Shown here one piece after another: positions 1 through 64,000 of a stretch of 64,000 bases of DNA. The notes under the pieces are model-generated. The model was not told the origin of the DNA. It searched no databases and saw only the letters and a list, made by a program, of their open reading frames with translations. The translations under genes were made by a program, and so were the position numbers. This DNA comes from Bolinopsis microptera (taxonomy: Eukaryota; Ctenophora; Tentaculata; Lobata; Bolinopsidae), in the NCBI RefSeq assembly GCF_026151205.1, contig NC_087076.1, positions 10,764,902-10,828,901 on the forward strand, given 5' to 3'. The number at the start of each line of letters is the position of its first letter. The stretch's first letter is position 1.

Positions 1-348
1 TGAAACCACAGATAATAATTGTGTTTTTCTTTTTAAAGATATATCTGGTTCCTTCTATTCTTGATTGTTTAAACTTCTTTCGAACATTCAAAAATTGAAG
101 TCTTTACAATACATTTATATTAGAAATCATGTTCTTTTTAAAACTTTCCTATCCAATTTTAAGACCTCAAAATGTCAAGCAGTTCTTCACCTCGAAGGGC
201 GTTTGTTCAATAAGGAACAAACCCGCTTGAAGAGAAAAGTTCACTGAAGATTCTTTACCTTTTTCACACTTTTACTACATCTTTTGGATGAAATCCAGAT
301 TACAGACCTGATCTGCTTTATACTGTACATTTACTATGCAAAATGATG

Positions 349-647
349 TAGTGGCGTAACGAAGGGCCTGCTGACCCTGCTGTGAGGGGGGCGCCCGTCT
401 TAGGGGGGCGCCAAATCGTCGTTTGAATTGGGGACAATTTCGGAAACTAACTAAAGTACTAGCAAAAAAACTGCGCGCTTTTGCTTAGATACACACTTTT
501 TTAAGAGTTTTACAGGCGTATCCTCTTTACGCCCTAATTTGTTCAATTTTCTGGGAGGGGGCGCACCAAAAGGAGAGGGGGGCAAACAGGGGGGGGGGGG
601 CGCCTTTTCGGCAGGGGGGCGCCAAAAGAAATCCGCTTACGTCACTG
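349..647. mobile_element. hAT-type MITE, copy 1
   Basis: Left end reads TAGTGGCGTAAC, right end GTCACTG, so both terminal repeats carry base changes. The right target duplicate is TGCAATTG (648-655) and the left is TGCAAAATG. This copy has the longest uninterrupted left arm G-runs. Confidence 0.8.
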
Positions 648-891
648 TGCAATTGTTCTATTTTTCTGCCACTTACCATGTGGTGTTTTTGGTTCCGATT
701 GTTAAATGATTGACCTTGAACTTTGGCCCCGGGTCATGTTATTTCGAGATAAAAGCGCACAACTCAATTTTGAGTAATTTTAGATGACTATCATCGTTAA
801 GTACTTCTCCAACTACATAATGTGATTGACTGATGGAATTAATTTAAATTATTTACATTTTTCCATCCTAAATTTACATTTTTCATCCTAA

Positions 892-1525
892 ATGTCTTGG
901 CAAGTCTGCACCAAGTGGACAGTGAACGGTGGGTTTGTCAGTAATGTAGGGATAATGTTGAGAAACTATGCAGTTAATTGATGCTCCGACGAGGGAAAAT
1001 GGATATCTGTTATAACGTCCCGTGTGTTGGAGTGTTGTGGGGATTAGGATAAGGCATTGGGTTGTGCATGGCAGTGAAGAATGGTTCCATGCCACCTTGG
1101 TTTGTTTATCAGTGAACGAGTCGCTGAGATGGATAATGAAGAGATATGGTTTTGTGTGATATTGTCAGCAGTGGATAGCAAACAAAATTTAATTGGGGCT
1201 CAATGGTTGTGAAGAGTTGATAGCTGAGAAAGTCCAAGTGTTTATCAAGGATGTGAAATGAGAAGAATCTTTTCTATTTCCAGAGGGTAAATCAGGTAGC
1301 GACTTAATAAAAGACTGGAATCGGCTATCCTCTTATTTACAGATGCTACCAAGTGGTAAGGCTATCGTTCGCTCTGGTTCATTTATTCTTGCCATTCATG
1401 TTGCATTAACGTCAAGCAAGTCAAAAGCAAGAGAACCATGTAACTTAATCTCACCAAGGTTTGGTAAATGGAAAATGGAGGACACTTGTCGATCTAATTC
1501 AATGTAAACGAAAGTTTTTCAATGA
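892..1525 (+). CDS. ORF1, PHD-finger protein, copy 1 (frame broken as written)
   Basis: Start placed at the ATG of ATGTCTTGGCAAG, end at the TGA of TTTTCAATGA. The cysteine cluster beginning TGTTATAAC lies at about 1008. Single-base deletions in the finger region and after it break the frame. Close alignment with the other copies is the only ground for calling it coding. Confidence 0.7.
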
Positions 1526-1912
1526 AACGAAAAGTTTTATTTTACATCCTTTTAATCATAATAAAATAAGAGCTTAAACCTCGTATTAGTTAGCTAGAAG
1601 TAAAACTTGAGGAAATATTTTGGCTGTTTGTATATATTATTTAAAAATCTTTATTTGGTTGTAGTATTTTTACTTATGGTAGTGGTTGAATTTTAGTGAG
1701 ACAAGGTCAGTTTCTATATTAATTTGAAAAATTTCTACTTTACGTAGGCAATGCTGAGCAATGGCAGGATTGAGGGACCAAAACGCTTGGGGCTTACAAT
1801 GGCCCCATTTACAAACACTTCGACAGGCAGTGATGTCATTTTGCTTAATTTCGTCTGAAATGACCCTACTGTACTTCTAACATTCTATAAAAATCTCTTC
1901 TAAAAAAGTATA

Positions 1913-4465
1913 ATGATGGAGTGCAAGAGTTTTCAGAAAGCATTGGTGCACGCTAAAAATATCAGCGTGGAATACTGGAAGAAGATTTTTTGACGACTAA
2001 TGCTTCTTGGGAAAGTTTTAAACCAGCCCCAAATTTGTTGACTGTTCCAATGATCCTTTGGAGTCTCACTGCCTAACAGCAAACATTAATACAGGTCCTG
2101 CTGGGAGAAACACCCTCCTGCTGTTAAAGAGATCCTGTTGGTCCTGCCACCCTCACAGTATCTCCAACCTAAAGGAGTGATATTGAGAGGGATTGACGCA
2201 GAGACGTCAAGAGGGCTTGTTTATATTTGGATGGATCCGGAGGACCCAACACTAACGGACTCAGATTTTGTGGAAAGCATATCATCTGCAGCAATTCATT
2301 TTGGCAAAGCTATCAGTGTCACTTGCTGAGTCACAATAGCAATTGTTGCAAGGGCCTTTGTAGAGAAGATATCCATCATAGCTGTCTGAAAGAGTTCACT
2401 GCTTGCAGGATTGAGCCTCTTGAAACAGGCCAGGTTTAAGAACGGGGAAACCTGGCGTAAGACCAATTGGAATCGGCGAGATATTTGCGCAGAATCTTGG
2501 GAAAAAGCAGTTTAATGTCTTTTCAATTATGATATACAATATGCTCGTGGCCCATGCAACCTGTGCAGGGCTCAAATCAGGAATAGAGGCTTCCATTCTG
2601 CAATGAGACAGATCTGGGAGGACAGTGGGTCACTGAGCAATTACTTACAGGTTGCGTTGATAATGCGTTAATCGTTTAATAGTGATGCTGCCCTCCATTG
2701 TTCATGAGATCTGTCCTCGGCTTATCGTTTTAAAGAAACCTCTACCAAAAGCCAGCAGACTCGATCATTATACTGACGAGGAGGACCACTCCAACTTAAG
2801 TCTGAGGAAGGGGGGGGTTTTCAACTCTGGGAGATGTAGCACATTGCATTTCTATGAGTTAGGGATCAAGCCTCTAGCTGATGACCTAGGCCAAGCCTCC
2901 AAGCCCGTGTTTGCAAACAATTCGTCGTATGCAGGACGACAGTAGTGTGGTTGGAAAGATTGAAGGTTATTAATATATCGGTGGGATACCTGTGGAGCAA
3001 GGACCAAGTATGGATATTTTCCCATAAGCCAGTAGACGTCCTGATTGTGATAGGATAGCGACGGACCTAGATCTTGCGCAGAAAGTATTCTCAGGCAACT
3101 GGTATTAAATTGAGGTCTGAAGGTGAACGCCAATTTGGTGCAGCATTGGCAGCCGTGCTTTAAGAACAAATATGTCTCGTTAAAGTCATAAATGGGACTG
3201 TGTCAGACATCAAGCTGTTGGCATCAATTGCTGTTGAGGAGCCCCAAGCTGCTTTGTCTGCATATTTCTAAGGGATTTTGTCACGCGTGGACGTTCATTC
3301 AGGAGGACCATTCCGGGTTTAAATCACTTGTTTCAACCATTGGAGGATTGCATCAGAACAGATTTTATTCCAGCATCTTGGGTAAGAACGTATCAGACTT
3401 GGTCCGTCATATTTGCATTGCCAAGTCAGACATGGTGGCCTAGGTAATCTCCACAACCCTTGTTGAAAACTGCAATAGTGAATTCACAGCCTCTGTCACC
3501 ATCACCAAAAGGACCTCACAGACCTGATTATCAACCAGCAAAACACCTTGACATTACACATGTCAATTCAAATGACACTATAAAAAGTCTACAGGCAATA
3601 AGGAGAAACTTATTTACGGTTAGCAAATCAATAGAGGACAGTGTAAGAATGATCCCAACATAATGAGTCTCTCGAGTTCATCAAGAGAAGGGTTCAGGAT
3701 AGTTGGCTTACTGCACTTCCATTGAAGAGATTTGGCTACTCCTGAACAGATTAGTTTCCGTGATGCTCTGTACTTGCGTTATGGTTGGGAGATCCCTAAC
3801 ACATTCCACTGTGCTTGTGCGAGAGAGAGAATATTGGAATCACACACACTTATAATATGAAGAAAGGTGGCTATGTTTATGAGACACAACAAACATCGCG
3901 ATCTAAATGGCAGAGCTTTGCAGCGTGAGTATGCGAGATGTTTTGTCTGAAGCAGCATTGAATACCCCTTGATAATGAAGAAATTGTTGGTACCAATGCT
4001 GTTAGAGCTGCACATCTGATGTATCCTCACGAGGTCTTGGAGCACATTTGAACGATCATTCTTTGATGTCTGTGTTACCACCCCATAACTCCACCCCACA
4101 TATGACAACAACAGATATGGAACAGATCTATAAGCTATGAAATGAGATGAAAATGAAAAAGTACAACAACAGAATCATCCAGGTGGATAAAGGCACCTTT
4201 ACCCCACTTATAATCAACAATGGCGGATGGGGTCACAAGCCTAAAGATCCACAAGAGACTCACTGAAAACACTTTTCACAGAAGAGAGAGAGAAGACTAT
4301 GCGGTTTTATGGTTACTTGCGCATCAAGGATTAGATTCTCAATTCTCAGGAGCACCCTGATAGCGGTTGGGGTGAGAGAGGGAGACGGGCAAGCGTAATA
4401 TTACATTGCCAGTCAGTTGTAACTTCGTTTAACTTGTACTGACACATGGTTCTGAATGTTTCTAG
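1913..4465 (+). CDS. ORF2, reverse transcriptase-endonuclease, copy 1 (frame broken as written)
   Basis: Starts at the double ATG after GTATA. The YADD codons are at about 2928-2940 with one inserted G. The frame from 2138 shows DAET...RGLVYIWMD, corresponding to the region before RT motif 1. The palm segment encoding PGVRPIGIGE is at about 2452-2481. Ends ATGTTTCTAG. Confidence 0.82.
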
Positions 4466-6250
4466 ACACTTTCCTTTTGATATTGAGTTATTGGTATCTA
4501 GATAAGTGTACACCGTTCTTTTTTTATTTTTTTATGGCACAGTTAATTTATTGACTCTCTTGTCAGCTTTAATTTTAATCTTGTTTCAGTCTTTTTATCT
4601 ATTCAACTTATTACATATTAGTGCTTGCTTTAGCAATCACTTGACTATTAAGTTCAGAGGCTTGACCTTATAGTCAGCCCAATTGGCCAATGCTATATTA
4701 TGGTATATTGTTTGAATATTCTTTTCTTCTGTAAAAAATAAAGTTAAAATGGGGGGGGGATATCAAAAATCTTATTAAATTTACATACTTTCCACTAGCT
4801 ATAATAAGTTGTAAAGCGTTTTTTAGCATATGAGGATTACACACCATGAATTCATTGAGTTCTCTTTAATAGTGCATAATTTAATCCATCATCTTTCCTA
4901 TTTTATATATTTCATCCGTAACATACCAAAAATAAAACTATTCATTTTTACAGATCCGTTTAAAATAGTTTTTTTAAAAAGGCCTTAATCTTATTTAAAA
5001 CTTAACACAGTCCACATTTTGACATCCGAGGGTAGTTTCGTTCAATTAACTATGGTCTCACCCTCTCAAGAGAAAAAGCAACTGTGGACTTTCTGCCATT
5101 TTTACTGCTACTTTTACTTTTATTTGACGGTTGTTCCTCGCCTAATATTTCTTTGAACGTAGCGCGACCGGTTTCTTCTCGTTGGGAGTGCTACGAAGTA
5201 GCGCGCGCGGGCCAGATCATCATAACAATGGTTTAAACTTTTACTGCATCTATGTTTAATACCACATTAAGACCAGATCTTCTCTACTGAACATAAACCA
5301 AGTCGTAGTTGGCCATAACAATTATCATTTTAAAAGATTCAATGTGGTACCCAACGTATTCGCTGCTCTGCCTAGCGTTATTATGTGGTGTCCACTCGAA
5401 AATGTATATGGAAGAGTACCATCTCGTCAATCAAGACAAAAGATGGGCAAAGGACAAAAAATATTGGGGCAAGATTTATTTAGGACTTATTAGGTTGTGT
5501 CCGATAGAGTTTAGTGAATTAATCAACATGGTGCATATTTATATCAAATCTTAATCAAAATCTTGTCAGTTGACTAGTACGTTGCATGCAATTTTCGCGG
5601 CGTGATATGGGATACGAACCATGTATTACTGTCATGTGTGTATGAACCCGCGCGCTCGAGTGCGCGTCCCCTGTTATCGTCAGGGATATAGTGAAAACGA
5701 CGTCGTGGGGGGTCACAAATTGATACAACACACAATAGAAAATACTATTTCTTCTGTCTTCATCATATCAAATTTAAAGGTAATAATTTATCAATTATTA
5801 ATCATGAAATAAAACAACATTTAAAGAAATGTATTTTAATTCATACTATACTTCCAGTTTGAAGTAAAGTTCATAAAACGTTTCTTGCTTACGTACATGA
5901 TAAGGATGAAACCACAGAATAATAATTGTGTTTTTCCTTATTAACTGATATAACTGGTACCTTCACTTCTTGTTAAAACTTCTTTTCGAAACATTCCAAA
6001 AATTGAAGTCATTTACAAACATTTTATTAGAAATCATGTATCTTTTTAAAACTTTCCTATCCAATTTTAAAGACTCAAAAACTGTCAACAGTTCTTCACC
6101 TCCGAAGGAGTTTGTTCAAATACGGATCAACCCGCTCTGGAGAAAAGAACACTGATGATTCTTTACCTTTATCACACTTTTACTACATCTAATGGATGAA
6201 ACTGATTAAGACCTGATATGCTTTACACTTTACATTTTACTATGCAAATG

Positions 6251-6540
6251 CTGTTGGCGTAACGAAGGCGCTGACCTGCTGTGCGGGGGGCGCCGTCTTA
6301 GGGGAGGCGCCAAATAGTCGTTTGATTGTGGGGACAGATTTCGAAAACTTAATAAAGGACTAGCTAAAATGCGCGTTTTGCTCTAGATACATCACTTTTT
6401 TTAGAGATTTACAGGCGTTTCCGCTTAACGCCTAATTTGTTCAATTTAGGGAGGGGCACCAAAAGGTGAGGGGGGCCATAAGGGGGGGGGGGGCCGCCTT
6501 TTTCGGCAGGGGGGCGCCAAAGGCAACGTTTTCGCACTTG
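6251..6540. mobile_element. hAT-type MITE, copy 2
   Basis: Left target duplicate TGCAAATG at 6243-6250 is perfect; the right one has lost an A (TGCAATG, 6541-6547). The right terminal repeat is disturbed (TTTTCGCACTTG). Confidence 0.82.
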
Positions 6541-6803
6541 TGCAATGTACTTATTTATGCCACTTACACTGTGGTGTACTTTTGGTTCGCATTGTAAAAG
6601 ATTGTCCTGCACTTTGCCCGGGTCATGATTTTCGAGAAAAAAAGCGGCACACTCTATTTTTGAGTAAATTTTGATGACTATCACATCCGTCAAGTACTTC
6701 TGCCAATTACATAATGTGATTTGGAACTGAATTAATAATATTTAAATTTTTACATTTTTCATCCTAATGTTTTTTTACCCCCAAGTTTTTTTTTCCATCC
6801 TAT

Positions 6804-7440
6804 ATGTCTTGGAAGTCTGCACCAGTGGACAGTGACGGTGGGGTTTGTAGAAATGTTAGGGAATATTGTAGAGAAACCAGCAGATCATTGTTGCTCCTGA
6901 CGAGGTAAAATGATATCTGTTATTACTGTCCCGTGTGTAGGAGTGGTGTGCGGGGATTCGGATAAGGAATTGGGTTGATGATGGCAGTGATGAATGGTTC
7001 CATGCACCTTGTTTGTTTATCAGTGAAACCGAGTACGCTTGAGATGGATAATGAGCAGATATGGTTTTGAGAATTGTCAAGCAGTGAATAGCAAACTAAA
7101 TTAATTGGGGGATCAATGGTTGGGGAAGAGTTGATAGCTGGAGAAAGTCCAGCTGTTTTCAAGAGATGGTGACATGGAGTAAAAGAATCTTTTCTTGTTC
7201 CCAGAGTAAATCAGGTAGGTCTTAATTAAAAGGAACGGACTCGGCTCATCTCTTATTTGCAGATTGTACAAGTGGGAAAGGTATCGTTCGCCACTGGTTA
7301 TATTCTTTGCCAATCATGTTGCAAAAACTCAAGCAAGTCTAAAGCAAGAGACCATGTAAATACTCACCAAGCGTTTGGTAATGGAAAAATGGAGAAAAAA
7401 ACCTTGACGATTAATCAATGAAACGAAAGGTTTTCAATGA
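6804..7440 (+). CDS. ORF1, PHD-finger protein, copy 2 (frame broken as written)
   Basis: The tandem repeat just upstream is disrupted here by T- and C-runs. The finger starts near 6918 with TGTTATTACTGT CCCGTGTGT. Several A-insertions near 7393 break the frame close to the C-terminus. Confidence 0.68.
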
Positions 7441-7830
7441 AACGAAAAGTTTTATTACATTCATTTAATCATAAATAAAATAAGAGCTTAAAACAACGAA
7501 TTAGTTAGATTAGAAGTAAACTTGAGGAAAATTTTTGGTGATTGTATATAATTATTTGAAAATCATTTATTTGGTTGTTAGTATTTTTTAACTATGGTAA
7601 GTGGTGAATTTTGTGAGACAAGGTCTGTTTCTCCTATTATCTTAGAATATTGCTACTTTACAGTAGGCAATTTGGTGGCCGGAATGAGGGACCAAAACGC
7701 TGGGCTTACAATGGCCCATTTACAAACCACTTCAGGACAGGCAGTGATGTAATTTATGCTTAATTAGTCTGAAACAGACCCTACTGCACCTTCTACATTC
7801 TATATAAATAGTTCTTAAATATGTTTACTG

Positions 7831-10380
7831 ATGGTGTGCAGGAGTATTCAGAAAAGCTTGGTGCAGCAACAAAAATTCAGCGAGGAATCAGGAAGAAGAG
7901 GTTCTGCGACTAATGTTCTGGGATAGTTAAACAAGGCACCAAAGTTGTTGCAGTTCCAATGACACTTAGGAGTTGTCCAGCCTAACAGCAAAATTAAAGG
8001 TCCTTCGGGGAGAAACACCCCCTCTGCTGTTAAAGAGATCAGTGATTCTGCACCCTCACAGTACTCATCCACCTCAGGAAGTGATAGTTGAGAGATTGCT
8101 GCAGAGACCGTCAAGAGGGCTTGTTTATATTTGGATGGATCAGGCGACCCCCCAACACTAACGGACTCAGATTTTGTGGAAGCTTTATATCATTGCAGCA
8201 AATCATTGGCTATGCATTCACAGTGACACTTGCTGAGTCAATAGCCATTGTTGCAAGGGCGCCTTTGTAGAGAAGTTATCCATCATAGCTGTCTGAAAGA
8301 GGTTCACTGCATGCAGATTCATCCCTCTTGATAAAGGCCAGGATAAGAACGGGAAACTGGCGTTAAGACCAATGGAATCGGCGAGATATTGGGCAGAATC
8401 ATTGGTAATGCATGTTATAATGTCTTTCAAAACTGATTATCATTATGCTGCTGGCCCACTGCAGACCTGTGCAGGGCTCAAATCAGGATTAGAGGCTTCC
8501 ATTCAATGCAATGTGACAGATCGGGAGACAGTGACACTGAAGCAAATATACATGGTTGACGCTTGATATGCGTTCAATCGTCTTAATTAGGTGAAGCAGC
8601 CTTCACAATGTTCATGAGATCTGTCCTACGCTTATCAGTATCTAAAGAACCAATACCAAAAGCTGCAGAACTGTCATTAATACTACCAGAGGAACACTTC
8701 CAACTTAGTCTGAGGAAGGTTCAACTCAGGGAGATGTAGCTGGCAATGGCATTCTATGCGTTAGGATCAAGCCTCTAGTAGATGACCTAGCACAGCTCCA
8801 AGCCCAGTGTTTGCAAAACAATCTTGGTATGCAGTACGACTGTAGTGTGGTGGAATCGATTGAGGTATTAATTAATGGTGGGTACGCTGTTGGAGCAAGG
8901 ACCTAAGTATGGATATTACCCTAAAGCAGTATGACCGTCTGATTTGTGATGAATAGCGAGGGACCTAGATCTTGAGCTGAAGTATTCTCAGGAACCTGGT
9001 ATTAAAATTGAGATGCTTGGAGTAGCTTTAGGTGCAGCAATTGGCAGCGAAGCTTTAGAACAATTATGTCTCAGATAAAGTCCATAATTGGTGTCAGGGA
9101 CATCAAGCTGTTGTCATCAATTGCTGGCTTGAGGAGCCCAAGCTGCTTTGGACTGCATATACTAAGGGTAATTTTGTCACCGGTGGACGTTCATTCAGAG
9201 GACCATCCCGGGTATAAGTCACTTGTTTAACCATTGGAGGATTGCATCTGAAAACTGATTTATTCCAGCAATCTTGGGTAAGAACGTATCGACTTGGACC
9301 GCTCCATATTTGCATTGCAGTCAGACCATGGTGGCTTGGTATCTCTCCAACCCTGTGAAAAACTGAATAGAGATATTGCCAGCCTCAGTCACCATCACCT
9401 AAAGAACTTCACAGACTGATTATCAACCAGCAAAACAACCTTGAACTTTACAAACATGTCAATTCAACATGACACTATAAAAAAGTCTCAACGGCAATTC
9501 AAGGAGAAACACTTATTTTACGGTTAGCAATCAATAGAGGACAGTGTAATGAGATCCCAACCTAAAGAGATCTCTCCAGGTCATCAACGAGAAAGTTCAG
9601 GATGTTGTGCTTACTGACTTCATTGAAGAGATTTGGTACTATCCTGAAAAAGATGAGTTCCGTGATGCTCTGTACTATGCGTTATGTTGGGAAATGATTT
9701 TTTTTCCCTAACACCCATTACACTGTGATTGTGGAGAGAAGATATAATGTGTACGCCACACACTATATGCAAGAAGGTGGCTATGTTTCTATGAGTCACA
9801 ACAACATCCGCGATTCAAAATGCAGAGCTGCAGCGTGTGAAGTATGCAGAGATGTGTGACTGAGCCAGCATTGATACCCCTTTGGTTAATGAAGAAATTG
9901 TTGTACTCAATGTGATTGAGCTTGCCAACTGATGTATCCTCACGAGGTATCTGGAGCACATTTGAACGAAACTTCTTTGATGTCTGTGTTACCTCACCAA
10001 CTCACCCACATATGACAAAAAGATATGGAACAGATCTATAAAGCTCATGAAATGAGGAAAATGTAAAAGTATCAACTACAGAATTCAGCCAGGTGGAAAA
10101 AGGCTCCTTTCCCCACTTATATATCAACATATGGCGGATGGGGTCCACATGCACATAGATACCACAAGAGACTCACTGAAAAAAAAAAACTATCCGATGA
10201 GAGGAAGAAGACTCTATGCGGCTTTATGTGTTACATGCGCACCAGGATTGATTCTCAATTCTCAGGAGCACCCTGTTAGCGTAAGGGGTGAAGGAGAGAG
10301 GGAGAGGCAAGCGTTATTCATTGCCGTCAGTGTACTTCGTTTAACTTGATACTGCCACATTGGGACTCTGATTGTTTCTG
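7831..10380 (+). CDS. ORF2, reverse transcriptase-endonuclease, copy 2 (frame broken as written)
   Basis: The first ATG of the double start is lost; the second is at 7831. The YADD codons at 8828-8840 contain an inserted T. A T-run near 9697 disrupts the segment just before the CCHC knuckle. The stop TAG has become TG at 10379-10380. Confidence 0.78.
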
Positions 10381-25251: not shown

Positions 25252-25264
25252 AACGAAGTGTTTT
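25227..25264 (+). repeat. 19-bp direct repeat spanning the ORF1 stop (copy 5)
   Basis: TCAATGAAACGAAAAGTTT and its near-copy TCAATGAAACGAAGTGTTT stand head to tail. The TGA stop of ORF1 lies in the second copy. The period is not a multiple of three, so the duplication itself places the stop. Confidence 0.7.
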
Positions 25265-52279: not shown

Positions 52280-53327
52280 AAATCTAATTTACATTTTACT
52301 TTCCACTACTATATAAGTTGATAAAGCGTTTTTTAGCAAAGAGGATTACACACATGTATTTCATTGTGCTTTACTTTATTAGTAGCATAATTTAATCCAT
52401 CAATCTTTCCTATTATATATATTTCATCCGCAAAACATACAAAAATAACTTTCATTTATAAGATCCGTTTAAAATAGTTTTTTTAAAAAGCCTCTAATTT
52501 ATTTTAAAACTTATCACAGTCCACATTTTTTGACATCCGAGGGAGTTTGTTCCAATTAATTATGGTCTCACCTCTCAGAGAAAAGAACTGTGGACATTTC
52601 TTCATTTTACTGCTACTTTTACTTTTATTTGACGGATGTTGCTCGCCTAATTTCTTTGAAGTTGTAGCGTATGCACGCTTTCTTCTGATGGCATGTGCTA
52701 CGAAGTTGCGCGACGCCGGGCCGATCATCATTAACAATGGTCAACTTTTACTGCATAACTACTGTTTTTATACCTCATTAAGACCAGATATCTCATACTG
52801 AACTACAAGCTCGTACGTAATTGGCATCCACTTATCTTTTTAAAAGATTCAATAGGTCCCCACGTTTCGCTGCTCTGCCAGCGATATTAACTTAAGGATG
52901 TCCACTCGAAAGTATAGGAAAGAGTACCCTTTCGTCAATCAGTAAAAGATGGGCAAAGCAAAAGATATTGGGCAAAGATTTTATTTACGACTTATTAGTT
53001 TGGTCACGTATAGGTTTAGTAAATTAATCAACCTGGTGCATAATTTATAGCAATCTAATTCAAAACTTTCATTTGACATAGTACGTTGCATGCCACTTTT
53101 CGCGCGTGATATTGGGATACGAAACATGGATCAACTTGTCATGTGTTGTTATGACCCGCGCGCACGAAGTGGCGGCGGCTTCCCTGTAATCGTCACGGGA
53201 TATTGTGTAGTGAAACGACGTCGTGGGGGTCACAACTTATTCAAAACACTACATAGAAAAAATAAACTATTTTTTCTGTTTCATCATATCAAATTTAAAG
53301 GTAATAAATTATCAAATATTAATCATG
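52280..53327 (+). repeat. Leader monomer A (copy 10)
   Basis: Begins just after AATAAA and ends where monomer B restarts with ATGAATAAAA. Anchors shared with monomer B occur in the same order: an ATACTTTCC / ATACTTCCC start, CGAAACATACCAAAAAT, a TTTTAAAACTTA block, TCCGAGGGAAGTTTGTTCC, AGAGAAAAGAAC, CATCTACTG, ATTAAGACC then GATCT, and TTAAAAGATT. Relative to B it has an extra segment of about 125 bp that contains two copies of GAAGTAGCGCGC. After the last shared anchor it runs on through about 500 bp not matched in B, including the GC-rich palindrome. Confidence 0.75.
52309..52317 (+). promoter_or_regulatory. TATA-like box at start of unit (copy 10)
   Basis: CTATATAAG lies about 40 bp 3' of the previous copy's AATAAA (52265-52270). 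It is intact also at 10704-10712, 22552-22560, 46323-46331 and 58231-58239, and recognisable though altered in the other copies. A core promoter role is inferred from sequence and place only. Confidence 0.5.
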
Positions 53328-54250
53328 AATAAAAAAACATTTAAAAAATGTAATTTATTCCATTACTATACTTCCAGTGAAGTAAAGATTCAATAAAACG
53401 TTTCTTGACTACGTACATGATAAGGATGAAATCCACAGATATATAATTGTGTTATTCTTATTATCTGATATAACTGGTACCTTCAATTCTTGTTAAAACA
53501 TTCTTTCGAAACATTCCCAAAAAATTGAAGTCATTTACAATACATTTATAATTAGAAATCATGTTCTTTTTAAAAATCTTTCATCCAATTTTAGACTCAA
53601 AAAAACTGTCAAGCAGTTCTTCACCTCCGAAAGGTGGTTGTTCAATAAGAACAACCCGCTCTGGAAGAAGAACAATGAAGATCTTTACCCTTCTATCACA
53701 CTTTTACTACATCTATTGGTGTGAAACAAGATTAGACTGATATGCTTTAACTTTACATTTACTATGCAAATGCAGTGGCGTAACGAAGGCCCTGCTGACC
53801 CTGGAGGTGCAGGGGGGCGCCGTTTAGGAGGGCGCCAAATCGTCGTTTGAATGTGGCGACAATTCGAAAACTTAACTAATGTACTAGCAAAAATGCGCGT
53901 TTTTTGCTCTAGATACCACTTTTTTTAGAGGATTTTACGGCGTAATTCCTCTCTTAAATCGCTAAAATTTGTTCAATTTTAAAGGGAGGGGCTCCACTAA
54001 AGGAGAGGGGGGCCTAAAGGGGGGGGGGGGGGCGCATTTTCGGCAGGGGGGCGCAACAGGCACGTTACGCCAACTGTGCAAATGTACTATTTTTCTGCAC
54101 TTACACTGTGGTGTACTTTGTTCCGCATTGTTAAAAGATTGACCTTGCACTTTGCCCCGGTCATGTTATTTCGAGAAAAAGCAGGGCACCCATTCTATTT
54201 TGAGAAATTTAGTTGACTATCATCCTTCAAAGTTCTTCTCCAACTACTTA
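53328..54250 (+). repeat. Leader monomer B with MITE insertion (copy 10)
   Basis: Restarts the monomer A pattern: AATAAAAA, CATACTATACTTCCAG, CGAAACATTCCCAAAAAAT, a TTTTTAAAAATCTTTC block, TCCGAAAGG...GTTG, GGAAGAAGAAC, CATCTATTGG, then ATTAGACTGAT. The MITE sits inside it at 53773-54076, and similarity to A resumes weakly with TTAAAAGATTGACC. The 3' limit is approximate because the two monomers stop resembling each other before ORF1. Confidence 0.72.
53773..54076. mobile_element. hAT-type MITE, copy 10 (reference copy)
   Basis: Perfect 8-bp target duplication TGCAAATG at 53765-53772 and 54077-54084. Left terminal repeat CAGTGGCGTAACG; right CGTTACGCCAACTG with one extra A. Inside each end, GGGGGGCGCC blocks lie in direct, not inverted, orientation, and a run of about 14 G precedes the right one. 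The core is AT-rich with no coding potential. Relatives of this CAGTGGCG / G-run type are known hAT-derived MITEs; the autonomous parent is not in the window. Confidence 0.92.
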
Positions 54251-54326
54251 TTGTGTTTTGACTGAATAATTTAATTTTTGAATTATTTACATTTTTCCAT
54301 CCTATATTTTACATTTTCCTTCCTAT

Positions 54327-54965
54327 ATGTTTGGCAAGCTCTGCACCAGTGGGGACAGTGAACGGTGGGTTTGCCTGAAATGTAGGGATAATGTTAGAGA
54401 ACAGCAGATCGTTGATGCTTCCTGACGAGGAAAATGTTATCTGTTATAACTGTTCGTGTTGTAGGAGTGTTGTGGGGATTCGGATAAGGATGGTTGTGAT
54501 GGCAGTGAAGTCGGTTCCCTGCACCTTGTTTGTTTATTCAGTGAATACCGAGTACGCTGAGATGGATAATCGAAGAGATATGGTTTTGTGATACTTGTCA
54601 AGCAGTGAAAGCAAACAAAATTAATTGGGGCTCATGGTTGGTGAGAGTTGATAGCTGTGTAATTCCATGCTGTTTATCATAGAGATGGTGACATGGAGAA
54701 AGATTCTTTTCATCAGTTCCCTGAGGTAAATCAGGTAGCGACTTAACTTAATAGAACTGACTCGGCTATCCTCTATTTGCATGATGCTACCAAGTGGAAA
54801 GGCTATCGATCGCATGGTTCATATATTCTTGCCAATCATGTTGCAAAAACGTCAAGCAAGTCAATGCAAGAGACCATGTAACATATCTCACCAAGGTTTC
54901 TGTTAAAAATGGAAAAAATGGAGATGACGATCTTAATCAATGAATCGAATAAAGTTTTCACATGA
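54327..54965 (+). CDS. ORF1, PHD-finger protein, copy 10 (finger readable)
   Basis: The frame from 54391 reads PDEENVICYNC then CRSVVG, giving direct sight of the first half of the finger. A missing base afterwards shifts the CDGSEEW segment. The stop region is TTTTCACATGA. Confidence 0.74.
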
Positions 54966-55371
54966 AACGTAAAGTTTTTATTTTACATTCCTTTAATCAT
55001 AAATAAAAAAGTGCTAAACCACGAATTTAGTTTAGCTAGAAGGAAATTGAGGAAATATTTTTGGTGATTGTATATAATTATTTAAATAAAAACTTATTTG
55101 GTTGTTAGTAGTTACTATGGGTAAGTGTTGTAATTTAGTGAGACAAGGTCAGTTTCTTATTATCTTAGAAAAAATTTCTACTTTACAGTAGGCAATGCTG
55201 AGGTGGCAGGTATGAGGGACATAAAACGCTTGGGTGGCGTACATTGGCCCATTTACAAACGCACTTCAGACATGGCAGTGATGTTCATTTTATGCTTTAA
55301 TTCGTCCTGAATACTGACCCTACTGCTCTTCTAACATTCTATAAAAATCTCTTCTAAAATAGGTTTAATAG

Positions 55372-57926
55372 ATGGAGTGCAGGAGTTTTCAGAATGCATT
55401 GGTGCAGCATAACAATAATATCAGCGGAGGAATCAATGAAGAAGAGTGTCTGCCGACTAAGCTTATTGGGAAAGTTAAACAAGCCACCAAATTTGTTAGA
55501 CAGTTCCAATGACACTTTGGTGTTCAAAGCTACAGCAACATTAAATCAGGTATTGGGGAGAAAACACCTCCTGCGGTTTAAAGCAGATCCAGTTGTTCTG
55601 CACCTCCACAGTACTATCCAACTCTGGAAGATGATATTGAGAGGGTTGTCGCCAGAGACCGTCAAGAGGGCTTGTTTATACTTGGATGGATCAGGAGGCA
55701 CATAACACTATCGGACTCGATTTGTGGAAGCATATCATCTGCCAGGCAAATCATTGGCAAAGCATCAGTGCCATTGCTGAGCAATAGCATGTTGCAAGGC
55801 GCCTTTGTAGGAGATGGATATCCATAATAGCTGTTCTAAAGAGGTTCACTGCATGCAGATTAATCCCTCTTGATTAAGGCCAGGATAAGAACGGGAAACC
55901 TGGCGTAAGACAATTGGAATCGGCGTGATATTGCGCAGGAATCATGGAAAGCAGTTATAATGTCTTTCTAATACTGATATACAATATGCTGCTTGGCCCA
56001 ACTGCAGACTGTGCAGGGTTCAATTCAGGAATAGAGGCTCCATTCATGCAATGAGGACAGGATCTGGGAAGACAGTGCCACTGATGCATTACTCACAGGT
56101 TGACGCTGATAATGCGTTTCTAATCGTCTTAATAGAGATGCAGCCCTTCACAATGTTCATGAGATCTGTCCTCCGCTCTATCGTATCTAAGAACCATACC
56201 AAAAGCCAGCAGACCTGATCATTTAATAATACCGAGGACCATACAACGTAGTCTGAGGAAGGTGCAATCAGGGAGATGTAGCCAGCAATGGCATTCTATG
56301 CGTTAGGGATCAAGGCCTCTAGTAGATGACCTAGCCACAGCCTACCAAGCCCAGTGTTGCAAAACAATTTGGTATGCAGACGGACGTAGTGTGGAGGTAA
56401 GATTGAAGGTTTTTTGATATGGTGGGATACGGCTGTTGGAGCAAGGACAAAGTATGGATATTACCCAAAAGCCAGTAAGGACCGTCATGATTGTGGAGAA
56501 TTTCGCGGACCTAGATCTTGCGCAGAAAGTATCTCAGGCACTGGTTTTTAAAATTGAGTCTGAAGGAGAAACGCATTTGGGTGCAGCAATTGGCATCGAA
56601 GCTTTAGAACAAAATTTGTCTCAGTTAAAGTCCATAAATGGTTGTCAGGACATCAAGCTGTTGTCATCTATTTGCTGTTGAGGAGCCCAAAGATGCTTTG
56701 ACTGCTATACCACTAAGGGGTAATTTGTCACAGGTGGACGTTCATTCAGAGGACCATCCGGGGTATAAGTCAATTGTTTTCTACCATTGGAGGATTGCAT
56801 CAGAACAGATTTTATTCCAGCAATCCTTGGGTAAGAACGTATCAGACTTGGAGACCGCTCCATATTTGCATTGCCAGTCAGAACATGGTGGCCTAGGTAT
56901 CTCCAACCCAGTTGAGGTTGAAAACTGCAATAGAGAATTCACACCTCAGTCACCATCACAAAATACCACACAGACTGTTTATCAACCAGCAAAAAACACC
57001 CTTGACATTACACATGTCAATCAAAATGACACTATAAAAAGTTCAAGGCAATCAGGAGAACACTTATTACGGTTAGTAGCAAATTTCAAGTAGAGGACAG
57101 TGTAAGAATCCCAACCTAAGAGATCTCTCCAGTTCATCAAAGAGAAAAGGTTCAGGATGTGCTTACTGCACTGTCAGACATTGGAAGAAGATTTGGTACT
57201 CCCTTGAACCAGATTGAGTCCGTGATGCTCTGTACTTGCGTTATGGTTGGGAGATTCCCTAACACCCCATTTTCACTGTGCTTGTGGAGAGAGAAATAAT
57301 GTGTATCACACTTATATGCATGAAAAAAAATCTTATAAGGTGGCTATGTTTTTATGAGAACAACAACATCGCGATCTATATGCAGAGATGCAGAGTGAAG
57401 TATGCAGTGATGTAGTGACTTGTGCCAGCATTGTTACCCCTTGATATGAGAAATTGTTGGTACAATGCTGATAGAGATGCACCTGATGTATCCTCACGAG
57501 GTCTCTTGGAGCAACATTTGAACGTAATTCTTTGATGTCTGTGTTACCCAACCCAACTCACACATTGACAAAAAAAGATATGGAACAGATCTATAAAAGC
57601 TCATGAAATGAGGTAAATGAAAAAAGTACAAACTACCGAATCATCCAGGTGGAGGAAAGGCACTTTACCATTATACACTCAACAATGGCGGATGGGGTCC
57701 ACAAGCAACAATGATTCACAAGAGACTCCTGGAAAAACTATCCCAGCTGAGAGTAGAAGGATATGCGGGGCTATATGTGTTACATGCGCACAGATTGATT
57801 CTCAATTCTTCAGGAGCACAATGATAGCGGTCAGGGGAGAGAGAGGGAGACGGCTAGCGTATACATTGCCTGTCAGTGTAACTTCGTTTAACTTGATACT
57901 GCCACCATGGACTCTGTATGTTTTAG
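55372..57926 (+). CDS. ORF2, reverse transcriptase-endonuclease, copy 10 (long readable stretches)
   Basis: An open stretch 55394-55705 shows KKSVCRLSLLGK, DSSNDTL, ADPVVLH and ETVKRACLYLDGSG in one frame. A second (56638-57093) shows later thumb segments. The first ATG of the double start is lost. YADD at 56373-56385 has one extra G. The endonuclease aspartates lie in about 57457-57548 (CCTGATGTATCC and TTTGATGTCTGTGTTACC). Confidence 0.86.
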
Positions 57927-58190
57927 ACACTATCCTTTTGATATTGAGATATTGGACTCAGATCACGTTGTACACGTTCTTTTTTTATTTTTTATGACAC
58001 AGTAATTTATTGAACTCATGTCAGCTATCATTTTTATCATTGAATCAGTATTTTTATCTATTAATTTTACTTATTTGTGCTCTGCTTTAGCATCACATGA
58101 CTATTAATGTTCAGGCCATGACCTTATAGTCAGCCAATTGGCCATTGCTTTATTATGTGTAATAGTTGAATATTCTCTTTCTTCTGTAAA

Positions 58191-58196
58191 AATAAA
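58191..58196 (+). terminator. Polyadenylation signal AATAAA (copy 10)
   Basis: AATAAA follows TTCTTCTGTAAA about 265 bases after the ORF2 stop. The same signal stands at 4737-4742, 10659-10664, 22511-22516, 28465-28470, 40326-40331, 46282-46287 and 52265-52270, and is altered near 16610 and 34411. No variable poly-A tail separates it from the next unit. Confidence 0.6.
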
Positions 58197-59689
58197 GTTA
58201 AAATGATCTAATTTTACAACTTTCCACTTACTATATAAGTTGATTAAGCGTTTTTTTTAGCAACTGAGGATTACACAACAAGATATTCTTGTGATTCTCT
58301 TTATTAAGTAGGCATAATTTAATCCATCAATTTTTCCCGATTTATATATTTTCATCAGAAAATACCAAAAATAAATATCATTTATACAGATCCGTTAAAA
58401 TTAGTTTTTTTTAAAAAGCCTCTATCTTATTTAAAACTTAACTCAGTCCACAATTTTTGACATCCGAGGAAGTTTGTTCAATTAATATGGTCTCACCCTC
58501 TCCAAAGAAAAGAACTGTGGACTTTCTTCATTTTACTGCTACTTTTACTTTTATTTTTGACGGATGTTACTCGCTAAATTTCTTTGAAAGTAGCGCGCAC
58601 GCATTTCTTCTCGATGGCATGTGCTACGATGTAGCGCGCGCCGGGCAAGATCATCATTAACAATGGTCATCTTTTACTGCATCTTGTTAATAACTTTAAG
58701 ACTGGATCTCTCATTACTGGATACTAACAAGCTCCTAATTGGCCAAAACCCACTTATCATTTTAAAGATTCAATGAGGTCCACACGTATTCGCCTGCTCT
58801 GCCAGCCGTTATTATTTAAAGGATGTCCACTCGACAACTGTTTGGAAGAAGTACCCATCTCGTAAATCTGACAAAAGATGGGCAAAGGACAAAAGATTTG
58901 GGGCAAGATTTATTTACGACTATTAGTGTTGTGTCTCGATAGAGTTTAGTGAATTAATCACCTGTGCATTAATTTATATCAATCTAATCAAAACTTGTAA
59001 TTTGACATAGGTACTTGCATGCCACTTTTCGCGCGTGATATTGGGATACGAAACATGTATTCTACTTGTCATGTGTTGTATGACCCGACGCGCACGAACG
59101 TGCGCGGCTCCATGTATCTCAGGGCTTAGTGAAACGTCGTTCGTGGGGTCACAAATTGATACAACACACTACATTAGAATAATAACTATTTCTTATGTTT
59201 CAGCTTATCAAATTTTAGGTTAGATTTATCAAATATTAATCATGAATAATAAACAACATTTAATAAATGTAAATTTATTCATACTATACTTCTGTGAAGT
59301 AAGATTCATAAAAACGTTTATTGCTACGTACATGATAAGGATGAAACCACAGATATTAAATTGTGTTTTTCCTTATTTACTGATATACTGGTACCTTCAA
59401 TTCTTGTTTAAAACTTCTTTCGAAACATTCCAATAATTGAAGTCATTTACAATAACGTTTATTAGAATTCATGTTCTTTTTTAAAACTTTCCAATCCAAT
59501 TTTAAGACTCAAAATGTCAAAGCAGTTTCTTCACCTCGAAGGAGTTTGTTCAATAAGGAACAACCCGGCCCCTCTTGGAAGAAAGAACACTGGAGATTCT
59601 TTACCTTTATCAAACTTTTACTACATCAAATTGGATGAAACCAGATTAGACCTGTTTCTGCTTTACTCTTATACATTTACTATCAAATG

Positions 59690-59987
59690 CAGTGGCGTAA
59701 CGTAGGGCCATGGCTCGACCCTGCTGTGCAGGGCGGGCGCGTTCTTTGGGGGCGCCAAATCGTCGTTTGAATGTGGGACAATTTCGAAAAAACTTAACTA
59801 ATGTACTAGCAAAAACTGCCGCGTTTTGCTCTAGATACACAACTTTTTTTAGAGTTTTTACCGGGTATCCTCTGAATCGCCTATTTTGTTTCAATTTTAG
59901 AGGAGGGGCACCAAATAGGAGGGGGGGCCATCAGGGGGGGGGGGGCCTTTTCGGCAGGGGGGCGCCAAAGGCAACGTTACGCCACTG
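59690..59987. mobile_element. hAT-type MITE, copy 11
   Basis: Left end CAGTGGCGTAACG preceded by TCAAATG (one base lost); right end CGTTACGCCACTG followed by perfect TGCAAATG 59988-59995. Confidence 0.87.
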
Positions 59988-60232
59988 TGCAAATGTACTA
60001 TTTTTCTGCCACTTACACTGTGGTGTACTTGGTTCCGCATTGATTTAAAGAATTGACCTTGGCATTTGCCCCGGGTCATGATATTGAGAATAAAGCGGAC
60101 ACACTCTATTTTGAGTAAATTTAGATGGCTATCATTCCGGCAAGTATTCTCCAACTACATAATGTGATTTAATGAATGAATTTAATTAAATTATTTATTT
60201 TTCCATCCTAAATTTACATTTTTCCATCCTAA

Positions 60233-60880
60233 ATTGTCTTGGCAAGGTCTGCACAGTGGACAGTGAACGGTGGGTTTGTCAGAAATGTAGGGATAATGTA
60301 CGAGAACCTGATGGATCATTGATGCTCCTGACGAAGGAATATGATACTAGTTTTTATCTGTCCCGTGTGTAGGAGTGTTGTGGGGGATTCGGCATAAAGG
60401 CATTGGGTTGTGATGGCAGTGAAGAATGGTTTCCATGCACCTTGTTTGTTTACAGTGAAAACGAGTTCGCTGAGATGGATAATGAAGAGATATTGGTTTT
60501 GTGTTACTGTCAAGCAGTGAAAGCAATACAAAATTAATTGGGGCTCAATGGTTGGTGAAGAGTTGATTGCTGAGAAAGTCCAAGCTGTGTTTTCAAGAGA
60601 TGGTGGTCATTGGAGAAAGAATATTTTCCTAGTTCCAGTGGTAAATTCAGTAGCGACTTAATTAAAAGAACTGACTCGGATCATCCTCTTATTTGCCAGA
60701 TGCTACCAAGTGGAAAGGCTATCGTTCGCATGGTTCATATCTTCTTGCCCAATTTGTTGCAAAAAACCGTTCAAGCAGTCAAATGAAACAAGAGAACCAT
60801 GTAAAATTTCACCAAGCGTTGGTTAATGGAATATGGAAACTTGTCCGATATAATCTATGAAATCGTATAGTTTTCAATGA
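60233..60880 (+). CDS. ORF1, PHD-finger protein, copy 11 (frame broken as written)
   Basis: The proposed start ATG is split by an extra T (AAATTGTC). The finger is well preserved in nucleotides from 60280 to 60520, with GGTTGTGATGGCAGTGAAGA near 60405. The C-terminal DDLINE segment near 60845 is degraded. Confidence 0.72.
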
Positions 60881-61287
60881 AACGAAATGTTTTATTTTAA
60901 TTCCTATATCATAAATAAAATAGAGCTTATAACCACGAATTAGTTAGCTTAGAAGTAAACTGAGGAAATTATTTTTTGGTTGATTGTATATAAATTATTT
61001 TAAAAAAACTTTATTTGGTTGTTAGTATTTTTACTATGGTAAGTGGTTGAATTTAGTGAGACAAGGTAAGTTTCCTATTATCTTAGAAAAATTTCTACTT
61101 ACAGTAAGGCAAATGCTGAGTGGCAGGAATGAGAGACCAAAAACGCTTGGGGCTTTACAATGGCCCATTTTACAAATCCACTTCAGACATGGCTGTGAGT
61201 GGATGTCATTTATGCTTAATTCGTCTGAAACTGGTACCCTATACTGCACTTCTAACATTCTATAAAAATCTCTTCTAAAATAGTATA

Positions 61288-63867
61288 ATGATGGAGTGCC
61301 GGGAGTTTCAGAAAAGCATTGGTGCAGCAACAAAAAACTCAGCGAGGAATCCAGGGAATGAAGAGTTTCTGCCGACTAATGCTTCTTGGGAAAGTCTAAA
61401 CAATGCCACCAAAATTTGTTGACAGTTCCAATGACACCTTAGGAGTTCAAGGCATAACAGCACAAACATTAAACAGGTTCCTTGGGAGAAACACCCTCCT
61501 GCTTGTTAAAAGCATATCCAGTTGTTTCTGCTCCCTCACATTACTCCTTCCTCCTCAAGGAAGTGATATTTCGAGGGATTGAAGCAGAGACAGTCAAGAT
61601 GGATTGTTTTTATTTGGATGGAATTCAGGCGGCCCAACCCAAACTAACGGACTCAGATTTGTGGAGCATATCATCTGCAGCAATCATTTGGCAATGCATC
61701 AGTCGACACTTATGAGTCAATAGCAATTGTTGCATGGCGGCCTTTGTAGAGATGATATCAATCATTGCTGTCTGGAAAGAGTTCACTGATGCGAGATTAA
61801 TTCCCTCTTGATAATGGCAAGGATTAGAACGGGAAACCTGGCGTAAGTAACAATTGGAATCGGACGAGATATTGCGCAGAATCATTGAAAAGCTGTTATA
61901 ATGTCTTTCAAAACTGATATAAATATGCTGCTGTGCCCACTGCAGCACCTGTGCAGGGCTCAATCAGGAATAGTGGCTTCCATCATGAATGGACAGATCT
62001 GAGGAGACAGTGGTCACTGAAGCAATACTAAGGTTGTCGCTGATAATGCGTTCAATTCGGTCTTATTAGAGAGCAGCCCTCTCACAATGTTCATGAGATC
62101 CTGTCCTCGATCTTTCAGTATCTAAAGAACACTACCAAAAGCCAGCAGACCTGATCATTAATACTACGAGGACACTTCCAACTATAAGTATGAGGGTGGT
62201 TCAACTCAGGGAGATGTAGCATGCAATGGCATTCTATGCGTAGGGATCAAGCCTCTAGTAGATGACCTAGCCACAGCCTCCAAAGCCCATGTTTGCAAAC
62301 AATCTTGGTCATGCAGACGACAGTTAGTGCTGTGGAAGATTGTGGTATTAATACTAAGGTGGTTACGATGTCCTGGAGCACAAGGACCAAGTATGGATAT
62401 TACCAAAAGCCGTAAGACCGTCCTGATTGTGAAGATAGCGGAGGACTAGATCTTGCGCAGAAGAATGTATTTCAGGGCACTGAGTATTAAAATTGAGTCT
62501 GAAGGAGAAACGCCATTTGGGATTGCAGCAATTGGCAGCGAAGCTTTTAAGAAAAAAATATGTCTCTGATACAAGTCCATAAATGTGTCAGGACATCAAG
62601 CTGTTTTGTCTTCAATTGCTTGTTGGAGGAGCCCAAAGGCTGCTTTGTCTGATTACTAGGGGAATTTGTCCACGGTGGAGTTCTTTCTGTAGGACCATCC
62701 CGGGTTATAAGTCACTGTTTCAACCATAGAGAGGATTGCCATCTGAACAGATTTTATTCCAGCAATCTTGGGTAAGATCGTATCCAGACTTGAAAGCTCC
62801 ATATTCTGCATTGCTGTCTAGTCAGGGGGCCTAGGTATCTCCAACCAGTTGAAAACTGAAATAGAGAATTCACAGCACTCAGTCAACCATCACAAAAGGG
62901 ACCTCACTGACCTGTGTATCAAACAGCAAAACCACCCTTGAACATACAACATGTTCAAGTCAAAAATGACACTATAAAAACGTCTCATGGCTATCATGGA
63001 GAAACATTATTACGGTTTGAAATCAATAGAGGACAGTGTAAGAGACCCAACCTTAAAGAGATCTCTCAGTTTTCATCAATAGAGAAAGGTTCTGGATGTT
63101 GGCTTTACTGCACTTCCATTGAAGAGATTTGGATACTCCTGACAAGATTGAGTTCAGTGGTGCTATGTACTTGGTTATGGTTGGGAGATCCCTAACACAC
63201 CAGTTTCACTGTGCTTTGTGGAGAGAGAAATAATGTGAATCACACACTTATAATGCAAGAAAGGTGGCTATGTTTTTCTATGTGACACAACACATATCCC
63301 TACGATCTAAAATGCAGAGCTGCAGCGATGTGAAGTTTTGCAGAGATGTAGTGACTGAGCCTGCATTGATACCCCTTGATAATGAAGTAAAGTTGTTGGT
63401 ACCATTGCTGATGAGCTGCACTGATGTATCATCACGAGGTCTCTGGAGAACATTTGACGTACTTCTTTGTTGTCTGTGTTACCCACCCAACTCACCCACA
63501 TATGACAAAAAAGATATGGAAACAGATCTATAAAGTCTGAAATGAGGAAAATGAAAAAGTACAACAACAGAATCATCAGGTGGAAAAAGGGGCAACTTTA
63601 CCCCACTTTTATACTAAACAAATGGCGGGATGGGGTCCACAAGCACAAGATACCACTAGAGACTCACTGAAAAACTATCCAGTAGAGAGGAGAAGCTATG
63701 CGGCTATTATGTGTTACATGCGCACAGGATTTGTTCTCTATTCTAAGGAGCACCTGGATAGCGGTTCAGGGGTGAGAGAGGGATGACGGCTAGCGTATAC
63801 ATTGCCAGTTCAGTGTAACTTCGTTTAACTAGATACCTTCGCCACATGGACTCTGAATGTTTTCTAG
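61288..63867 (+). CDS. ORF2, reverse transcriptase-endonuclease, copy 11 (frame broken as written)
   Basis: Both start ATGs are intact (61288-61293). The frame from 61482 shows GIEAETVK. YADD at about 62309-62321 has TAT changed to TCAT. From 62914 the thumb-to-knuckle region is readable, and from 63580 the endonuclease tail. Ends TTTCTAG. Confidence 0.83.
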
Positions 63868-63885
63868 ACACTATCCTTTTGATAT

Positions 63886-63903
63886 TGAGATATTGGTATC
63901 TCA
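63886..63903 (+). other. 3' UTR hairpin (copy 11)
   Basis: TGAGATATTGGTATCTCA forms a perfect 7-bp stem with a TTGG loop, about 20 bases 3' of the ORF2 stop. It is also perfect at 28204-28221 and recognisable in the other copies. In R2-type elements the 3' UTR fold is recognised by the RT; a similar role here is inference. Confidence 0.55.
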
Positions 63904-64000
63904 GTTCACGTGATACACCGTTCCTTTTTTTAGTTTATTTGGACACAGTAGTAATTTATTGACACTCATGTCAGCATAATTTTTATCATTGAATCAGTAT

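What the first reader, a model, noticed from the sequence alone, without database searches (positions are those of the whole stretch)
1..64000. A homogeneous head-to-tail array of full-length non-LTR retrotransposons
Seen: eleven units in one orientation, equal in length within about 2 percent, with identical junctions and no 5' truncation or intervening host DNA. Known: RT-endonuclease non-LTR elements normally insert singly and are often 5'-truncated; head-to-tail chains are mainly known at specialised loci such as Drosophila telomeres. Inference: this is either a satellite-like locus formed from a retrotransposon by DNA amplification, or an extrachromosomal or rolling-circle concatemer.
Basis: partly seen in the sequence, partly recalled or inferred. 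Interest (0 to 1): 0.78.

Follow-up and report, generated by a model that had tools for sequence, protein, structure and literature searches.

The report
Recombined retrotransposon array, raw-read noise
A run of near-identical 5.9-kb repeats, each made of a broken retrotransposon plus neighbouring DNA and traceable to recombination between two nearby insertions, appears to have been pasted into this genome assembly as uncorrected sequencing data, so its letters and its position should not be trusted.

Summary
The head-to-tail array is there: 10 complete units of 5,900-5,998 bp plus two part-units fill the window, and the tract spans about 97.4 kb (C5:10733781-10831191). Three details of the finding are wrong. 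(1) The units are not full-length elements: each holds a copy 5'-truncated by 151 bp and split by a 418-bp dispersed repeat. (2) Each carries about 2.05 kb of flanking DNA. (3) The letters are mostly sequencing noise: units differ by 18% at every distance, about half of it short gaps, with A>T outnumbering T>A 11 to 1. A 17,879-bp piece recurs letter for letter, inverted, on another chromosome. I infer uncorrected long-read filler, probably misplaced at least once. Beneath the noise no substitution difference between units is detectable. Clean DNA 62 kb downstream keeps the likely seed: a 419-bp 3' fragment (A), the spacer, and a longer copy with its own 3' end (B). All 16 junctions tested fit B-left/A-right hybrids best, switching within about 33 bp. 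So the array arose by DNA recombination between two insertions (unequal crossover or circle excision), not serial retrotransposition. TE-derived satellites of this kind are known. Whether the array is chromosomal or extrachromosomal stays open.

The parts
1..64000 (+). Part of a 97.4-kb noisy tandem tract (C5:10733781-10831191, about 16.4 units); 10 complete units here
1..4298 (+). 3' part of a unit
   Evidence: tract coordinates minus 9901
4299..10215 (+). complete unit, 5917 bp
10216..16166 (+). complete unit, 5951 bp
16167..22066 (+). complete unit, 5900 bp
22067..28024 (+). complete unit, 5958 bp
28025..33970 (+). complete unit, 5946 bp (used for most of the anatomy rows below)
33971..39886 (+). 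complete unit, 5916 bp
39887..45828 (+). complete unit, 5942 bp
45829..51826 (+). complete unit, 5998 bp
51827..57764 (+). complete unit, 5938 bp
57765..63697 (+). complete unit, 5933 bp
63698..64000 (+). start of the next unit
26008..28456 (+). RT part and 3' end of a 5'-truncated retrotransposon copy (one example; recurs in each unit, running across the unit boundary as I drew it)
   Evidence: query 8-2456 + 26000; domains named on clean copies
28248..28282 (+). approximate crossover interval (positions 224-257 of the unit): B letters to the left, A letters to the right
   Evidence: window position approximate because of noise
28457..30509 (+). about 2.05-kb spacer: flanking DNA with pieces of other repeats, not part of the element
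30510..31152 (+). truncated 5' part of the element copy (PHD-finger region)
31153..31561 (+). nested dispersed repeat (418 bp with TAAT on both sides in the clean unit) interrupting the element
25339..43217 (+). 17,879 bp found letter for letter, inverted, at C12:13806542-13824420

Best explanation
Two same-orientation insertions of one non-LTR-type retrotransposon lay about 2 kb apart: a 419-bp 3' fragment (A) and a longer 5'-truncated copy, split by a 418-bp repeat, ending in 3' end B. Recombination between the 3' ends A and B created a 5.9-kb unit (A's right part, spacer, element, B's left part). Repeated unequal exchange, or excision as a circle followed by rolling-circle amplification, then made a near-identical tandem array. 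The assembly could not resolve it, and a gap on C5 was filled with a long uncorrected read (or same-strand reads) from such an array. Part of the same filler was also used on C12. Shown: noise signature, verbatim reuse, hybrid junctions, seed structure, no detectable substitution variation between units. Inferred: the filler step and tool, the single read, the route (crossover or circle), and the true location.
For: Noise: pairwise identity 81.6-82.2% at all 10 lags, flat with distance; 3.4% mismatch, 3.4% deletion, 4.3% insertion against a clean unit, mostly 1-bp indels; A>T 1202 vs T>A 105, C>A 447 vs G>T 63 over 12 units; A>T excess in 12 of 12 units and in 2 of 2 further units. Control: L002 differs from two other clean dispersed copies by 26 and 27 mismatches (18 and 17 of them transitions) and 3 and 6 gap openings in 3,438 bp. 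Verbatim reuse of 17,879 bp on C12. No substitution is shared by exactly 5 or 6 of 12 units, and substitution sharing by 2-4 units is near an independent-error simulation. Junctions: 16 of 16 score best as B-left/A-right; B's letters at three substitution sites are absent from 12 of 12 other clean loci (one best-aligned copy each), none of which has an aligned match to the middle base of A's 3-bp insert. Seed A-spacer-element-B in clean DNA at C5:10893892-10900210. Right flank clean from about 1.05 kb beyond the tract.
Against: No read data or depth, so 'raw read' and 'single read' are inferred. The left flank and the first 1.05 kb of the right flank could not be judged clean or noisy. Outside the junction the array differs from the clean seed by about 6 fixed substitutions and 2 indels per 5.9 kb, so the assembled seed is a close relative or an allele, not the exact parent. 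Variants in 1-3 of 12 units cannot be told from noise. Deletions are shared more often than independent error predicts (34 sites in 4 units against 5.6 simulated, 14 in 5 against 0.35, 6 in 6 against 0); 15 of the 20 sites in 5-6 units are a C in a run of 2-4 C, 3 more lie in a fixed indel. I read them as systematic miscalls, untested.
Confidence: 0.85

Rival explanations
1. An old chromosomal array whose units have diverged by 18% through ordinary mutation, part of it recently copied to C12.
For: The letters of the assembly taken at face value; identical block on C12.
Against: Divergence flat with distance; 11-fold A>T over T>A asymmetry and more indel bases than substitutions, unlike clean copies of the same element; no substitution shared by 5 or 6 of 12 units.
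Confidence: 0.03
2. Extrachromosomal circle or rolling-circle concatemer: the unit was excised by recombination between A and B, and the read is a concatemer of that circle, not a chromosomal array.
For: A circle excised between A and B carries exactly the B-left/A-right junction seen; no substitution variation between units detected; both ends of the C5 tract and of the C12 piece stop mid-unit, so nothing anchors it in the chromosome.
Against: A chromosomal array by unequal crossover predicts the same junction and similar homogeneity if young; no direct evidence of a circle.
Confidence: 0.27
3. Serial head-to-tail retrotransposition, as at Drosophila telomeres.
For: Head-to-tail order and one orientation.
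Against: The aligned units share the truncation point, nested repeat and 2.05-kb spacer and the same recombinant junction; independent insertions would not repeat these.
Confidence: 0.01
4. The whole repetition is an assembler or gap-closer artefact: a short real piece was looped many times.
For: The same noisy stretch is present on C5 and C12.
Against: Within the window no unit repeats another verbatim; each carries its own errors. All 14 units aligned show the same strand bias, unlikely if each came from a different random read.
Confidence: 0.08

Closest known systems
TE-derived satellite DNA formed from two nearby insertions by unequal exchange (McGurk and Barbash 2018, itself not opened; known here from passages of PMC12628747 and a citation in PMC9659126)
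   Same: Two same-family insertions serve as substrate; recombination between homologous parts makes a tandem unit; later exchange expands and homogenises it.
   Different: The recombining homology here is a 419-bp 3' end of a non-LTR-type element, not an LTR; the unit includes 2.05 kb of flanking DNA; the array is seen only in uncorrected sequence.
Gap filling with error-prone long reads (TGS-GapCloser PMC7476103, DENTIST PMC8848313; passages read; abstract openings)
   Same: Raw-read-quality sequence inside an otherwise clean assembly. [quoted passage not shown]
   Different: The tool used for this assembly is unknown; I saw no passage describing reuse of one read stretch on two chromosomes.
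Retrotransposon-derived tandem repeats in ultra-long nanopore reads (PMC7004042; abstract and outline seen)
   Same: Long arrays born from retrotransposons, studied in noisy long reads.
   Different: There the arrays came from short tandem arrays inside LTR retrotransposons; here from recombination between two insertions.
Drosophila telomeric HeT-A/TART arrays (recalled; the elements are mentioned in a passage of PMC9659126)
   Same: Head-to-tail non-LTR elements.
   Different: Those arise by repeated end-addition (recalled); here the units share one truncation, one nested insert and one spacer.

Membership tests
TE-derived tandem (satellite-like) array by double insertion and unequal exchange | Head-to-tail units of equal length | tested here: met
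   10 of 10 complete units in the window 5,900-5,998 bp
TE-derived tandem (satellite-like) array by double insertion and unequal exchange | Two neighbouring same-orientation insertions as seed | tested here: met
   A and B, 5,885 bp apart start to start in clean DNA (L001)
TE-derived tandem (satellite-like) array by double insertion and unequal exchange | Unit junctions are recombinants of the two insertions | tested here: met
   16 of 16 junctions scored fit B-left/A-right best; the 17th, at the left end of the tract, is cut off
TE-derived tandem (satellite-like) array by double insertion and unequal exchange | Units homogenised | tested here: met
   No substitution shared by 5 or 6 of 12 units; sharing by 2-4 near independent error; variants in 1-3 units undetectable; deletions over-shared, read as miscalls
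TE-derived tandem (satellite-like) array by double insertion and unequal exchange | Array anchored in the chromosome at both ends | tested here: inconclusive
   Both ends of the C5 tract and of the C12 piece stop mid-unit
Serial head-to-tail retrotransposition (HeT-A/TART type) | Each unit an independent insertion without common flanking DNA | tested here: not met
   Common spacer, nested repeat and truncation in the aligned units
Non-LTR retrotransposon (the element inside the unit) | Reverse transcriptase domain | tested here: met
   PF00078 30.0 bits vs cut-off 29.6, E 5.3e-7, in a 935-aa frame of a clean dispersed copy
Non-LTR retrotransposon (the element inside the unit) | Variable 5' truncation with common 3' end | tested here: met
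   6 of 10 dispersed loci share the 5' end of L002, 4 start further in; last matched base of L002 (reverse complement) between 4716 and 4723 in 10 of 10
Non-LTR retrotransposon (the element inside the unit) | No long terminal repeats | tested here: met
   Self-comparison of L002 shows no second match
Non-LTR retrotransposon (the element inside the unit) | Target-site duplication at insertion | not tested
   flanks were not compared for this
Non-LTR retrotransposon (the element inside the unit) | Endonuclease domain (APE or restriction-like) | tested here: inconclusive
   No Pfam or NCBIfam endonuclease match; the C-terminal part lies in a second, overlapping frame
Gap filled with uncorrected long-read sequence | Random, indel-rich, strand-asymmetric errors | tested here: met
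Gap filled with uncorrected long-read sequence | Tract bounded by clean DNA | tested here: inconclusive
   Right flank clean from about 1.05 kb beyond the end; left flank without close repeats to judge by; C12 flanks not tested
Gap filled with uncorrected long-read sequence | Presence in the raw reads / assembly log | not testable with these tools
   no reads held

The most novel reading that the evidence does not exclude
The unit exists as an extrachromosomal circle excised by recombination between the two 3' ends and is amplified as a long rolling-circle concatemer (at least 16 near-identical units, about 97 kb), so the organism carries a large circular or concatemeric derivative of a dead retrotransposon locus.
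Probability: 0.22. Interest if true: 0.5.

Novelty: new member of a known kind. Interest (0 to 1): 0.3.

Why it matters
It is a clear worked example of how a satellite-like array can start: the seed (two nearby insertions), the recombinant junction to within about 33 bp, and the near-identical product can all be seen. It is also a warning. A chromosome-scale assembly carries about 97 kb of raw-read-like sequence on one chromosome and 17.9 kb of the same letters on another, so repeat ages, gene counts or divergence estimates taken from such tracts would be wrong.

Tried and rejected
Rfam on the window gave nothing at gathering thresholds. Pfam on ten noisy window frames gave only two sub-threshold matches, Replitron_HUH and CD24, taken as chance and not pursued. 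One 6-kb piece of the window had no match in the phage collection in distant mode. For the clean 935-aa frame, the 60 of 70 solved-structure rows shown matched only within its first 200 residues, mostly PHD-finger chains (best: pygopus), and none over the RT; NCBIfam gave no match for that frame and two far-below-cut-off matches for the 206-aa one. So I did not place the element in a clade; a paper search on such elements was seen as a listing only. Old divergence was rejected on the flat distance and error spectrum. A tandem of independent insertions was rejected on the shared spacer and hybrid junction. I considered identifying the sequencing platform from the error spectrum and dropped it: the A>T and C>A bias is recorded, but no reference spectrum was read. 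Whether the left flank of the C5 tract is clean could not be tested, since it has no close repeats to compare. A paper search on raw-read gap fills in tandem repeats listed nothing I used.
Full report
What is in the window. The window lies at C5:10764902-10828901 of a 264.65-Mb, 232-contig assembly. Self-comparison gives direct matches at ten lags in steps of about 5.93 kb and no inverted match. Against a clean unit found elsewhere on C5, the window holds 10 complete units of 5,900-5,998 bp and a part-unit at each end. The tract extends beyond the window on both sides, from about C5:10733781 to C5:10831191, about 97.4 kb or 16.4 units. The spacer query found 17 spacers in it. Fifteen units are complete by position; 14 of these were read whole and aligned (12, 2), and the fifteenth spans 1 kb that I did not hold.

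The letters are noise. Units are 81.6-82.2% identical at every lag and equally alike at all 11 unit distances. Against the clean unit L001:892-6776, 12 units show 3.4% mismatches, 3.4% deleted and 4.3% inserted bases, mostly single-base indels. Substitutions are strongly strand-asymmetric: A>T 1202 against T>A 105, and C>A 447 against G>T 63. Bases called as in the clean unit are 97.6% for G, 96.6% for T, 89.9% for A and 89.1% for C. The A>T bias holds in 12 of 12 units and 2 of 2 more. As a control, clean dispersed copy L002 differs from L003 and L031 by 26 and 27 substitutions, about two thirds of them transitions, and 3 and 6 gap openings over 3,438 bp. The same noisy letters occur on another chromosome: 17,879 bp at C12:13806542-13824420 equal window 25339-43217 inverted, without one difference, and at one end abut a trinucleotide repeat. 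On C5 the right flank is clean from about 1.05 kb beyond the tract, where a repeat matches dispersed copies mostly at 97-98%; nearer than that, and on the left, it could not be judged, and the C12 flanks were not tested. I infer uncorrected long-read sequence used as filler, at one of the two places wrongly unless the array really was copied there. That each unit has its own errors while all 14 share one strand bias points to one read or few reads of one strand.

Under the noise. With 20 positions that carry one difference in at least 7 of 12 units set aside, no substitution is shared by 5 or 6 units, and sharing by 2, 3 and 4 units (291, 67 and 9 sites) is near a simulation of independent errors (278, 46 and 6). 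Deletions are over-shared: 34, 14 and 6 sites in 4, 5 and 6 units against 5.6, 0.35 and 0 simulated. Of the 20 sites in 5 or 6 units, 15 are a C in a run of 2-4 C and 3 lie in a fixed indel; I take the C deletions for systematic miscalls, which is not tested. Among insertions, one T is shared by 5 units and one 2-base insertion, beside the fixed indel, by 7; insertions were not simulated. So no substitution difference between units is detectable, although variants in one to three units could hide.

Anatomy. Dispersed clean copies (L002, L003, L029-L037) define an element of about 3.6 kb. Six of ten loci share the 5' end of L002, and four begin further in. L002 has a 935-aa frame with PHD-finger matches (PF00628 over its cut-off, two stretches) and a reverse transcriptase (PF00078, 30.0 bits against a cut-off of 29.6). 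The copy in the array unit starts 151 bp inside that 5' end and is split by a 418-bp dispersed repeat with TAAT on both sides; 40 of 40 scored matches to that repeat, the query's own place included, out of 366 candidates, are 97-100% identical. Between copies lie about 2.05 kb of spacer. Among 40 scored of 5,425 candidates its full-length or near full-length matches are one clean one (L001), 17 in the noisy tract and 3 on C12; the rest are embedded repeats. The units are therefore neither full-length elements nor free of other DNA.

Origin. The clean locus C5:10893892-10900210, about 62 kb downstream of the tract, reads: 3' fragment A (419 bp), spacer, element with the nested repeat, its 3' end B. 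A and B differ at several sites. In 12 array units the sites up to position 224 mostly carry B's letters (position 47 in 9, 96 in 10, 217 in 7 of 12; B's T-rich insert at 224 placed there by the aligner in 8 of 12), and from 257 on they carry A's (the 3 bases at 257-259 and the T at 312 in 12 of 12). Scored as whole stretches, 16 of 16 junctions fit a B-left/A-right hybrid better than A, B or the reverse hybrid. B's letters at 47, 96 and 217 were absent from 12 of 12 other clean loci, one best-aligned copy each, and the middle base of A's 3-bp insert had no aligned match in any of them. This is the product expected of recombination between A and B, by unequal crossover or by excision of a circle; both give the same junction. 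The array also differs from the clean seed by about six substitutions and two indels outside the junction, so the assembled seed may be the other allele or an edge unit. A collapsed array would leave A on the left and B on the right, just as seen, so the clean locus may be where the array belongs; this is inference.

Known kinds. Formation of tandem repeats and satellites from pairs of transposable elements by unequal exchange is described; I read passages of PMC12628747 and PMC9659126, which cite McGurk and Barbash 2018 (not opened), and the abstract and outline of PMC7004042. Filling gaps with error-prone reads and the resulting errors are described in passages of PMC7476103 and PMC8848313, the latter mentioning insertion of a solitary raw read. 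I make no claim that this particular locus is or is not in print.

Verdict. The repetition is very probably real in a molecule; its letters are not to be trusted and its placement probably not. The mechanism of origin, recombination between two neighbouring retrotransposon insertions, is well supported; chromosomal array against extrachromosomal concatemer is open.

Noticed in passing
C12:13806542-13824420 (L020, L023, L024): 17,879 bp identical, inverted, to window 25339-43217; both ends fall inside the nested 418-bp repeat of the unit and one abuts an (ACT)n-like repeat.
   Followed up: yes
G000 genome-wide: 150 scored reverse-transcriptase matches (of 6,513 candidates), all but four by my count without an internal stop and many in frames of about 1,000-1,180 aa with identical scores: several retrotransposon families look recently active, and those copies are cleanly assembled.
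   Followed up: no
L002:2114-4921 (-): Retrotransposon frame with PHD-finger matches (one close to pygopus in solved structures) ahead of the RT and no recognised endonuclease; its clade is not settled.
   Followed up: partly
L001:3988-4405: 418-bp dispersed repeat with TAAT on both sides, starting with two copies of a 19-bp motif and without obvious terminal inverted repeats by eye; 40 of 40 scored matches including itself are 97-100% identical, so probably recently active.
   Followed up: partly
L001:1-490 and L019:6194-6684: A 491-bp inverted repeat (99.4%) just upstream of the clean seed locus.
   Followed up: no
L001:7329-9309, L040, L041: Further partial copies of the same element close to the seed on C5 and close to the C12 filler.
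   Followed up: partly
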